Shown here: piece after piece, positions 1-8,027 of the stretch
Position numbering within the stretch: the first letter of the stretch is position 1
Layout of the letters: every line of letters starts with the position of its first letter
Assembly (NCBI GenBank): GCA_017379255.1
Contig: JAFNWZ010000301.1
Coordinates: 1-8,027 of the forward strand
Direction: 5' to 3'
Length of the DNA stretch: 8,027 nt
Source of the DNA: Akkermansia sp.
Lineage (GTDB): Bacteria > Verrucomicrobiota > Verrucomicrobiia > Verrucomicrobiales > Akkermansiaceae
Notes under the pieces: generated by a model
Told to the model about the DNA's origin: nothing
The model's input: the letters and a program-made list of their open reading frames with translations, nothing else
The model's database searches: none
Program-made: the position numbers and the translations under genes

Positions 1-138
1 ATTTACCCGGGGTTCCGCCGCTAACGCGGCTCCACCCCGCGCTACTTTATACCGCCCTGACGGGCTCAAAAATCCGCGCACTCCGCGCGCCAGAATAGAC
101 CGATAAATTACAATCTACGAAACTTTGGGACACATGTG
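1..138. mobile_element. End of a hairpin-rich MITE-like repeat (copy A), truncated by the window edge
   Basis: This stretch matches the right part of the complete element at 3074-3496. Both hold a CGGGGT...ACCCCG hairpin (8-39), a second small hairpin (54-65), a GC-rich palindrome (75-89), then ATAAATTACAATCT and the terminal sequence GAAACTTTGGGACACATGTG ending at 138. Positions 100-138 are an exact 39-base reverse complement of 3074-3112, the left end of the other copy. No coding region is visible. The other end lies outside the window. The boundary at 138 is inferred from the well-defined boundary of the second copy. Confidence 0.75.
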
Positions 139-3073: not shown

Positions 3074-3136
3074 CACATGTGTCCCAAAGTTTCGTAGATT
3101 GTAATTTATCGGTGAGCGTAGCGAGCGGAATTCATA

Positions 3137-3476: not shown

Positions 3477-3496
3477 GAAACGTTGGGACACATGTG

Positions 3497-3505
3497 AATT
3501 CTGAT
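3497..3505. repeat. Right 9-bp target-site duplication
   Basis: AATTCTGAT directly follows the right terminal CACATGTG and is identical to 3065-3073. The match stops at exactly nine bases in both directions. Confidence 0.88.
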
Positions 3506-6429: not shown

Positions 6430-7434
6430 TCAGGCAGCCCAGAACCGGGCCGCCCTTTGCACCCCGCGCTGGTCCACATAGCGCGTTCTCAGCAGCGTGG
6501 CATCGCGATGCCCGATTTCCACCTGCAGCTCCGCGTAGCTGCGGAAGTGGCTCAGGTGGTAGCTCGCAAAGGTATGCCGCAGCACATCCTGCGGCCATTT
6601 CCTGCCGCCTCCCCAGCCGGAGGCGCGGCGCAGCTCGCGCCAGTGGTGCAGCCAGTTGCGCGGGCAAATCAACCCATTATCTTCTCCTTTCCTTTTTCGC
6701 AGAATCCGCAGTAGCGGCTTGTGAATCGTCACCCGCCGCGCGCCACCGGTCTTGCTGTGCTGCGGCAGAATATAGATAGCCTGCGCCTGTAAATCCACCT
6801 GCGCCCATGTGAGCCGCGCCACCTCATGCGGTCGGATGCCGGCGTAGAGCATCATCCCCACCGCCGCCGCGCAGCTGCCACCCTGGTAGTCCTCTGCCGT
6901 TGTGGTAAGCTGCCCAATCTCCTGCGGCGTCAGAACCGGCACGGGGTGCTCCACCACCCGCGGTGCTTCCACCTTAGAAACAGGGTTCGCATCGCACCAG
7001 CCCCGCTTCACCGCAGTGCCGAATACCCCGCTCAGGATTAAGCGTGCCTTCTGCCGCTGCCGGGGCGTATCAAACGCCGTTTCAATGTACTCCGCGCACT
7101 CCTGAGGAGTGATGCTGCGCACTTTCCTCTTCGCCAGTCCCTTGCATCGCAGAATGAATCGCCGCGTGAAGTATCGGAAATCATAGACCGTTCGGATTCG
7201 CCTGTCCTTCCGCGCCTCCAGCGCTACATCCACCGCCTGCTCAAAGCTCACCGTTCGCTCTTGTTGTTTGAGAGCTTCTGCTCCTGCGGCAATGCACCGC
7301 TTTGCGCGTTTGATGCTGCCCCTATTGGCCTCTAAGATTTCTTTCGCGATTATTGCTGCTTCGAGTACGGGAACTCCCGTGGCGCTCAGAATCGCCAGAG
7401 CGGCTTGATCGTCGGTATGCTGTGTTGGTTTCAT
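6430..7434 (-). CDS. Tyrosine recombinase (XerC/D-like integrase), probable invertase for the adjacent switch
   Basis: This is a site-specific DNA recombinase that cuts and rejoins through a 3'-phosphotyrosine. The 334 residues comprise an N-terminal helical extension (1-60), a core-binding SAM-like domain (about 62-155) and the catalytic domain. Catalytic candidates are Arg201 in YAGIRPHEVARLTW, Lys228 in HSKTGGARRVTI, Arg286 in DVLRHTFASYHL, His309 in IGHRD and nucleophile Tyr319 in RTRYVD. The His normally three residues before the second Arg is Asp283 here; related integrases vary at this position, so activity is still likely. No phage, conjugation or cargo genes accompany it, which argues against a prophage or ICE integrase. 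Its start lies 7 bp from an 18-bp inverted repeat forming the invertible segment, so that segment is the likely substrate (inference). The ATG at 7432-7434 has no Shine-Dalgarno site and touches a weak -10-like TAAAAC. No internal Met before residue 194 offers a good alternative. Confidence 0.92.
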   Translation of the reverse strand: MKPTQHTDDQAALAILSATGVPVLEAAIIAKEILEANRGSIKRAKRCIAAGAEALKQQERTVSFEQAVDVALEARKDRRIRTVYDFRYFTRRFILRCKGLAKRKVRSITPQECAEYIETAFDTPRQRQKARLILSGVFGTAVKRGWCDANPVSKVEAPRVVEHPVPVLTPQEIGQLTTTAEDYQGGSCAAAVGMMLYAGIRPHEVARLTWAQVDLQAQAIYILPQHSKTGGARRVTIHKPLLRILRKRKGEDNGLICPRNWLHHWRELRRASGWGGGRKWPQDVLRHTFASYHLSHFRSYAELQVEIGHRDATLLRTRYVDQRGVQRAARFWAA

Positions 7435-7441
7435 GTTTTAT

Positions 7442-7459
7442 CGCTTTTGAAATTCGTAA
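7442..7459. repeat. Left 18-bp inverted repeat of the invertible segment
   Basis: CGCTTTTGAAATTCGTAA is the exact reverse complement of 7585-7602, and the match ends sharply on both sides. Length and placement next to a tyrosine recombinase gene fit a recombination site with crossover inside the repeat. Confidence 0.85.
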
Positions 7460-7464
7460 GTCAA
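7459..7464 (-). promoter_or_regulatory. -35 element TTGACT inside the invertible segment, currently facing the recombinase
   Basis: On the minus strand TTGACT matches the consensus in five of six bases. Five bases lie inside the invertible segment and the sixth is the first base of the repeat. In the present orientation it is followed by only a poor -10 (ATAAAA at 17 bp or TAAAAC at 18 bp) touching the recombinase ATG. After inversion it would occupy 7580-7585, exactly 17 bp before TATAAT. Confidence 0.6.
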
Positions 7465-7584
7465 GCACAAAAACTGTTTTAATCTGAGAAAATTGTGAAA
7501 TACATAATCTCATTTCATGTAACGGTGTTTCCAGAGTGGATATTCTGGTATCATCAGAAGAACAGACAATTAGTCTATACAGCT
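7460..7584. other. 125-bp predicted invertible DNA segment (phase-variation switch)
   Basis: This AT-rich stretch is bounded by the exact 18-bp inverted repeats and lies between the divergent recombinase and surface-protein genes. It holds no credible gene. Its left edge carries an outward -35 box and its right edge (ACAGCT) carries none, so it is asymmetric exactly as a promoter switch needs. A weak internal palindrome (CCAGA 7531-7535 with TCTGG 7544-7548) is also present. Confidence 0.72.
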
Positions 7585-7602
7585 TTACGAATTTCAAAAG
7601 CG
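7585..7602. repeat. Right 18-bp inverted repeat of the invertible segment
   Basis: TTACGAATTTCAAAAGCG is the perfect partner of 7442-7459. It occupies all but one base of the interval between the would-be -35 position and the -10 box at 7603. Confidence 0.85.
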
Positions 7603-7608
7603 TATAAT
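7603..7608 (+). promoter_or_regulatory. Perfect -10 box of the surface-protein gene, lacking a -35 in this orientation
   Basis: TATAAT starts at the first base after the right repeat and lies 22 bases before the ATG at 7631, giving a leader of about 15 nt. The hexamer 17 bases upstream is CAGCTT (7580-7585), which matches TTGACA at one position only. The promoter should be silent or weak as written. Confidence 0.65.
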
Positions 7609-7630
7609 TCCGGAAATTCATCATTCTATT

Positions 7631-8027
7631 ATGAAACTTCATCTCCCCAAATCATTGTTGGCTACAGTTTTAGCTGTATTATGTGTGTCCTCGTTACAAG
7701 CTGAAGAGTATACCGGTTCTGTAGGTGGGGATGGGGTGACATTGGATCGCTTTACTAATTTATCAGGAGGCTATATTCTGAATGTATCTTATTTATTGGA
7801 TTTCACGGACTGCGATGGTTTTACTATAGCTGATAACACTACGTCAGGAGGTCTCAGAACGAGTTCTGATATTTTGATAAGTGCATGTGGTGATGTTGTC
7901 ATCCGGAATAACGATAGCGTAGAAGGTCTACGAAGCGGTATACTTGAAGCTGAGAATATAATTATTACAGGAAACGATAGTGTAACATTCAGCGAAAATG
8001 ATAAGGATACGATGTATTACCAAGGAC
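7631..8027 (+). CDS. Secreted beta-helix-like surface protein, N-terminal part (continues past the window)
   Basis: I do not recognise a named gene. The open frame runs from ATG 7631 through 132 codons to the window edge without a stop. It begins with a clear signal peptide: MKLHLPKSLL, a hydrophobic core to residue 22, and a likely signal peptidase I site after SLQA (residue 24). Cys18 is not in a good lipobox. The mature part is rich in Asn, Asp, Ser, Gly and beta-branched residues and shows rung-like repeats: DGFTIADNTTSGGL (62-75), ILISACGDVVIRNNDSV (81-97) and ILEAENIIITGNDSVTF (104-120). The VTFSEN string resembles the FxxN motif of Pmp/autotransporter-type beta-helices. I infer export and possibly surface display through an unseen C-terminus. 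Base composition is far more AT-rich than htpG or pilT. Expression is probably set by the invertible promoter just upstream. Confidence 0.8.
   Translation, partial: MKLHLPKSLLATVLAVLCVSSLQAEEYTGSVGGDGVTLDRFTNLSGGYILNVSYLLDFTDCDGFTIADNTTSGGLRTSSDILISACGDVVIRNNDSVEGLRSGILEAENIIITGNDSVTFSENDKDTMYYQG

What the first reader, a model, noticed from the sequence alone, without database searches (positions are those of the whole stretch)
7442..7608. Promoter-inversion (phase-variation) switch whose flip would build a near-perfect promoter
An exact 18-bp inverted repeat (7442-7459, 7585-7602) encloses 125 bp. TATAAT lies immediately outside the right repeat and has no -35. TTGACT lies at the inner edge of the left repeat, pointing away. 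Inversion moves it to 7580-7585, giving TTGACT, a 17-bp spacer made of the repeat, and TATAAT: 11 of 12 consensus bases at ideal spacing, reading into a secreted protein gene. The adjacent gene is a tyrosine recombinase. Splitting a promoter so the repeat is its spacer leaves a clean ON/OFF readout. As written, the locus is OFF. Invertible promoters controlled by site-specific recombinases are established in gut bacteria; this particular locus and architecture are my inference.
Basis: partly seen in the sequence, partly recalled or inferred. Interest (0 to 1): 0.93.

Follow-up and report, generated by a model that had tools for sequence, protein, structure and literature searches.

The report
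Flip-assembled split promoter switch
In the genome of a gut bacterium of the genus Akkermansia, a 125-base piece of DNA holds what looks like one half of a gene's start signal, and a neighbouring recombinase is predicted to flip it so that the two halves meet, likely switching a predicted surface protein on or off; the same two-part layout is found at dozens of other sites in the genus.

Summary
An exact 18-bp inverted repeat (7442-7459, 7585-7602) encloses 125 bp; TTGACT sits at its left inner edge and TATAAT directly outside its right edge. Inversion gives TTGACT-17-TATAAT before a predicted secreted-protein gene, beside an intact tyrosine recombinase gene. As written the locus is OFF. Comparison supports the reading strongly. 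In 46 non-redundant cassettes (this one included) TAnnnT lies exactly 17 nt from TTGAC on the gene side in 37 (18 nt in 5 more) and, towards the recombinase, in 0 of 46 at 17. Four loci, one in this genome, are assembled ON. One paralogous contig ends in a mirror copy of its own recombinase start, as expected if reads held both orientations. In two single-contig Akkermansia genomes, of 29 sites examined, 25 have TA at spacer 17 on exactly one side and none on both; 3 of 7 orthologous pairs lie in opposite orientations. Akkermansia invertons near autotransporter and PEP-CTERM genes are published. What I did not find described, in limited searches, is that the promoter is split with the recombination site as its spacer, nor the cassette with its own recombinase. 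Flipping and transcription at this locus are untested.

The parts
6430..7434 (-). Tyrosine recombinase gene (334 aa), divergent from the target gene; likely inverts the segment
   Evidence: Pfam Phage_integrase E 7.9e-13. R201, K228, R286, H309 and Y319 are conserved in every one of the 65-68 of 69 aligned rows that cover the position; the usual His of HxxR is Asp in 67 of 67 (the roles of these residues are recalled)
7442..7459 (+). Left recombination arm CGCTTTTGAAATTCGTAA
   Evidence: Exact inverted repeat; similar arms, 3 mismatches, in paralogous cassettes of the same genome
7460..7584 (.). Invertible 125-bp segment, assembled in the OFF orientation
   Evidence: Aligns better with other cassette segments in the TTGACT frame than the other way (0.58-0.70 against 0.50-0.55); paralogue C308 holds its segment the other way round relative to its flanks
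7459..7464 (-). Mobile -35-like half TTGACT, now pointing at the recombinase gene; would move to 7580-7585 (+) on inversion
   Evidence: Sequence; the 46 loci scored carry TTGACT, having been selected for TTGAC at an arm
7585..7602 (+). Right recombination arm; 7586-7602 would be the 17-nt promoter spacer in the ON state
7603..7608 (+). Fixed -10-like half TATAAT
   Evidence: TAnnnT at this exact spacing in 37 of 46 loci on the gene side, 0 of 46 on the recombinase side
7631..8027 (+). Target gene, 5' part only: predicted secreted surface protein, runs off the contig
   Evidence: Start resembles targets of other cassettes (MKLHLP-type in 23 of 43, this one included). The full-length target of paralogue C308 matches Chlamydia-PMP-type repeats, passenger/autotransporter repeats and PEP-CTERM, some of them near the cut-offs; 26 residues of the two starts align at 65%

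Best explanation
An exact 18-bp inverted repeat beside an intact tyrosine recombinase gene encloses 125 bp with a -35-like box (TTGACT) at one edge, and the recombinase is predicted to flip this segment so that the box meets the -10-like box (TATAAT) fixed in front of a predicted surface-protein gene, which would switch that gene on. The repeat arm is itself the 17-bp promoter spacer, so strand exchange within the arm keeps the spacing. Shown by sequence and comparison: the arms, the two boxes, their spacing, the lack of a promoter match as written, the one-sided -10 across relatives, and both orientations among relatives. Inferred: that the adjacent recombinase does the flipping, that this locus still flips, that the ON form is transcribed and the OFF form is silent, and that the product is surface exposed. 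Within one genome several such cassettes sit before different genes, so cells could likely show different combinations of surface proteins.
For: (1) In 46 non-redundant loci with recombinase, repeat and TTGAC (window included), TAnnnT lies at spacer 17 on the gene side in 37 and at 18 in 5 more; towards the recombinase 0 of 46 at 17. Background at other gene-side spacings is 5 of 644. (2) In the OFF form the hexamer at the -35 place matches TTGACA at only 0-3 of 6 positions in 45 of 45 (C121 left out); allowing spacers 16-18 the best match is 4 of 6, in 2 loci. (3) 42 loci are OFF and 4 ON as assembled; the ON paralogue C308 is in this same genome, and its segment matches OFF paralogues C228 and C359 at 0.81 and 0.80 in the TTGACT frame against 0.52 and 0.47 the other way. 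(4) Contig C121 runs recombinase start, arm, segment, arm, mirror copy of the recombinase start (59 nt exact, arm included) and ends there, as if reads of both orientations were joined. (5) The two arms of a locus vary together: 0.67 mismatches of 13 within loci, 3.2 between, 0 of 5000 permutations (loci were chosen for having matching arms, which biases this). Recombinase distance tracks arm distance (rho 0.67, 0 of 2000). (6) In single-contig genomes G059 and G060, a pattern of TTGAC plus arm motif gives 50 and 54 hits, 0 in reversed controls. Of 30 read in context, 29 have the partner arm on the segment side and 2 have a match on the other side; TA at spacer 17 on exactly one side in 25 of 29, on both in 0. 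3 of 7 orthologous pairs are in opposite orientations.
Against: No reads could be examined, and the window contig itself is assembled in one orientation. 9 of 46 loci lack TAnnnT at 17 (4 lack it at 17 and 18; one of these is the C121 join). 10 of 56 repeat-bearing loci have no TTGAC at the arm, and 3 upstream regions of full length gave no repeat. In the two single-contig genomes 4 of 29 sites have TA on neither side, and the last T of the -10 is mostly missing there (TAnnnT at 17 on 2 current and 3 flipped sides). The related loci share ancestry, so counts are not independent. What transcribes the recombinase gene is unexplained. The window's arms differ by 3 bases from the nearest paralogous arms.
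Confidence: 0.88

Rival explanations
1. The switch is a fossil or is locked: the cassette family flips, but this copy is fixed OFF.
For: The window contig is assembled in one orientation only; the arms have drifted 3 bases from the paralogues; copies without a recombinase gene occur elsewhere in this genome (C65, C25).
Against: Both arms carry the same 3 changes and stay 18/18 identical; the recombinase ORF is open with its conserved residues; the -10 is a perfect TATAAT.
Confidence: 0.09
2. The segment swings an outward promoter between recombinase gene and target gene, so that the form called OFF drives the recombinase.
For: TTGACT faces the recombinase gene in the OFF form, 24 nt from its start codon in the window.
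Against: TAnnnT at spacer 17 towards the recombinase in 0 of 46 loci, and at most 1 of 46 at any spacing from 10 to 26.
Confidence: 0.06
3. The repeats are binding or integration sites of a mobile element's integrase and do not invert; the promoter match is chance.
For: The recombinase is of the phage-integrase fold family and cassettes sit before unrelated genes.
Against: One-sided -10 at fixed spacing and loci in both orientations. Two exact site patterns had no match in viral contigs, which is weak evidence.
Confidence: 0.02

Closest known systems
Akkermansia muciniphila invertons (motif of Jiang et al. 2019, cited in PMC13343947; 'group 138' of PMC11892184)
   Same: Inverted repeats with a CGGATT-type core around a short segment (158 bp between arms in the printed example), near autotransporter or PEP-CTERM genes; orientation shifts over mouse generations (passages of PMC11892184); the cps1 inverton switches capsule (passages of PMC13343947).
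   Different: The passages I read speak of a promoter motif in inverton sequences; none says that only the -35 is inside and the -10 outside. Here the recombinase gene sits in the cassette itself; at the one site examined closely in G059 (2094059-2094248) no recombinase relative lies beside it.
Bacteroides capsule invertible promoters with the Mpi recombinase (recalled; Mpi is cited in PMC11892184)
   Same: Inversion of short segments by a site-specific recombinase turning surface genes on or off.
   Different: Recalled: there the promoter lies inside the segment and one recombinase serves many sites; here the promoter is divided at the recombination site.
Mycoplasma penetrans p35-family promoter inversion (recalled, not read)
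   Same: Many paralogous surface-protein genes, each with its own small invertible promoter element.
   Different: Other organism and gene family; no recombinase gene in each cassette, as far as I recall.
E. coli fimS with FimB/FimE (recalled)
   Same: Short inverted repeats, tyrosine recombinase, promoter inversion before a surface structure.
   Different: Recalled: a whole promoter moves; in the split form only the -35 moves.

Membership tests
Invertible promoter (inverton), general kind | Inverted repeats enclosing a short segment next to a gene start | tested here: met
   18/18 arms, 125-bp loop, 28 bp between the right arm and the ATG
Invertible promoter (inverton), general kind | One orientation has a promoter sequence for the gene and the other has none | tested here: met
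   By sequence only: TTGACT-17-TATAAT after inversion, no promoter match as written
Invertible promoter (inverton), general kind | Both orientations observed | tested here: inconclusive
   Seen among paralogues, orthologous pairs and in the C121 contig, not for this locus itself
Invertible promoter (inverton), general kind | Orientation-dependent transcription | not testable with these tools
   Needs reporter or RNA data
Published Akkermansia inverton type (CGGATT..AATCCG; group 138) | Arm motif CGGATT-N3-AATCCG | tested here: inconclusive
   Window arm CGAATT-TCA-AAAGCG matches 9 of 12; several same-genome cassettes have CGGATT exactly but a different second half; not filed as a strict member
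Published Akkermansia inverton type (CGGATT..AATCCG; group 138) | Next to PEP-CTERM or autotransporter genes | tested here: inconclusive
   The window gene is cut by the contig end and has no family match; the target of paralogue C308 matches PMP, autotransporter-repeat and PEP-CTERM models
Tyrosine recombinase | R-K-HxxR-H-Y active-site residues (recalled) | tested here: inconclusive
   R, K, R, H, Y conserved; Asp replaces the first His of HxxR in 67 of 67 aligned

The most novel reading that the evidence does not exclude
Akkermansia builds phase-variable promoters from two halves: the invertible DNA carries only a -35 box, every target gene keeps its own -10 box, and the recombination site itself is the 17-bp spacer. 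This single rule lets ON or OFF be read from bare sequence at many sites per genome. In gut species such as this one it is packaged as a portable cassette with its own recombinase and matched arms, placed before different surface genes.
Probability: 0.7. Interest if true: 0.72.

Novelty: new variant of a known kind. Interest (0 to 1): 0.62.

Why it matters
If the rule holds, the ON or OFF state of many switches in a widely studied gut genus can be called from assemblies and reads alone. It may also explain why PMC11892184, which searched for motifs in inverton sequences, found the Akkermansia promoter motif only weakly promoter-like: half of the promoter would lie outside (my inference). A spacer that must also be a crossover site ties recombination and transcription to the same 17 bp, which is directly testable.

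Tried and rejected
Integrase promoter: I looked for a -10 facing the recombinase gene at spacer 17 and found none. In several cassettes an AT-rich TATAAY-like stretch lies just inside the far arm (e.g. C308, C228), which might serve the recombinase in the ON form, but it is not conserved; left open.

The first arm co-variation test was circular, because the inverted copy was compared with itself; the one was out of register between loci. Only one search is used.

Orthologues of the window's own target and of the L058 target, to see one locus in both states: too diverged in other species. Gene-side test by ORF length in G059 and G060: flanks too short to discriminate. Exact 24-mer in genome contigs and two patterns in viral contigs: no match. 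The inverton coordinates printed in PMC11892184 do not hold a repeat in G059; one with the same 158-bp loop lies 1966 bp further on, next to a 1845-aa ORF with an MKLRLP start. That these are the same inverton is a guess. L221/L222 look like a further pair in opposite orientations by eye but fell under my flank-similarity cut and are not counted.

Paper searches. The three aimed at a divided promoter returned no paper, but their wording was narrow. Jiang et al. 2019 is not held and supplements were not open to me. Seen as passages only: PMC13343947, PMC11892184; of PMC8278651 the single match was its reference list.

Full report
What is there. The window is contig C278 of a 457-contig genome, G000. 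Of the 42 related loci, 33 are titled Akkermansia sp. with a ruminant host in the title and 9 Akkermansiaceae bacterium without a host. At the window's right end stand a tyrosine recombinase gene (6430-7434, minus), an exact 18-bp inverted repeat (7442-7459, 7585-7602) around 125 bp, TATAAT at 7603-7608, and the start of a predicted secreted protein at 7631. TTGACT lies on the minus strand at 7464-7459. Inversion brings it to 7580-7585, 17 nt before TATAAT. As written no sigma-70-like promoter is found in 7300-7750.

Is it more than chance? The repeat alone is: 200 window shuffles held no match and the best of 400 Markov controls scored 12 against 18 here. The promoter halves needed a comparative test, because one 11-of-12 match can be luck.

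Test across related cassettes. I took 77 sequences: the window, 5 further loci of G000, 29 loci from relatives and the 42 from genome contigs; many of the last two sets are the same places. I looked upstream of each recombinase gene. 56 non-redundant loci had a repeat. Three regions of full length had none (L047, L077, L085; the last was anchored inside the gene), eight entries were cut short by contig ends (L011, L020/L049, L023/L051, L033, L035, L066), and three lacked the gene start (L088-L090). 46 of the 56 carry TTGAC at an arm; 10 do not. Reading each of the 46 in the orientation that points TTGAC at the target gene, TAnnnT stands at spacer 17 in 37 and at 18 in 5; other spacings from 10 to 26 give at most 2. 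Reading towards the recombinase gene gives 0 of 46 at 17 and at most 1 at any spacing. Gene-side background is 5 of 644. Without the C121 join, the 45 loci have at the -35 place of the OFF form only 0-3 matches to TTGACA (up to 4, in 2 loci, if spacers 16-18 are allowed). So the -10 belongs to the target gene, the -35 belongs to the segment, and the arm is the spacer.

Evidence for inversion. 42 loci are assembled OFF and 4 ON (L007 in this genome, L024, L058, L086). L007's segment matches OFF paralogues L006 and L008 in the TTGACT frame (0.81 and 0.80, against 0.52 and 0.47 the other way), so relative to its flanks it is turned round. Contig C121 of this genome ends in a 59-nt mirror copy of its own arm and recombinase start, most simply a join of reads from both orientations. 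Arms of one locus vary together and track their recombinase; both could partly reflect common descent and the way loci were chosen.

Beyond the cassette. In the single-contig genomes G059 (2,664,102 bp; I recall this as the length of the A. muciniphila type strain, not verified) and G060, TTGACNNCGGATTNNNAATNCG with up to 2 mismatches gives 50 and 54 hits, the reversed control none; some hits overlap on both strands or are two arms of one element. I held 30 of these 104 in context, all zero-mismatch (15 of 19 and 15 of 16). 29 of 30 have a partner arm on the segment side; 2 have a match on the other side. TA at spacer 17 is on exactly one side in 25 of 29 and on both in none; other spacings give at most 6; background is 38 of 1044. 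By that rule 15 are ON, 10 OFF and 4 undecided. Seven orthologous pairs between the two genomes could be matched by flanks; three are in opposite orientations (L207/L210, L209/L212, L223/L224; the first is of the undecided kind) and four in the same. The one-sidedness matters: a base preference of the recombinase should show on both arms.

Targets. Of 45 cassette loci, 43 had a reading frame starting near the arm; 23 begin MKLHLP-like, the other 20 are varied (by eye, not scanned, some resemble acyltransferases, GtrA-type membrane proteins and a glycosyltransferase). The full-length target of paralogue C308 matches Chlamydia PMP repeats, passenger/autotransporter repeats and PEP-CTERM.

What is known. 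PMC11892184 (passages read) reports an inverton group with 32 of 39 members in A. muciniphila, near autotransporter and PEP-CTERM genes, with orientation shifts over mouse generations, and an Akkermansia promoter motif that missed its p < 0.001 promoter cut-off. PMC13343947 (passages) shows the cps1 inverton in both orientations linked to capsule. Neither set of passages describes a split promoter. Jiang et al. 2019 could not be read, so priority is uncertain.

Limits. No reads, no RNA, no enzyme assay. The recombinase's own promoter is unexplained, and its HxxR His is replaced by Asp in all 67 aligned rows that cover it, whose effect is unknown.

Noticed in passing
G000:C65:3693-3718 (L121): An inverton before an autotransporter-like gene, in the ON form (TTGACT-17-TAGGAT); no recombinase relative was found on this contig, so it may be served in trans.
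   Followed up: partly
G000:C25:253-407 (L126): Arms and TTGACT next to what looks by eye like a decayed recombinase gene.
   Followed up: no
G000:C121:6385-6443 (L010): Contig ends in a 59-nt mirror copy of its own arm and recombinase start, as if both orientations were assembled together.
   Followed up: partly
window 6430-7434: The recombinase family has Asp in place of the first His of the HxxR motif in 67 of 67 aligned rows.
   Followed up: partly
window 99-138 and 3074-3113; also 3096-3132/3386-3422 and 3477-3497: A 40-nt exact inverted repeat 2.9 kb apart around an HSP90-type gene and a ZIP-type transporter gene, with further related copies; perhaps traces of a mobile element.
   Followed up: no
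G059 and G060, hits: 50 and 54 TTGAC-arm hits; of the 29 sites examined, 15 ON and 10 OFF by the spacer-17 rule.
   Followed up: partly
cassette loci: Cassettes with a recombinase gene are assembled OFF 42 to 4, while the examined sites in the two single-contig genomes are 15 ON to 10 OFF; the cause of the OFF excess is unknown.
   Followed up: no
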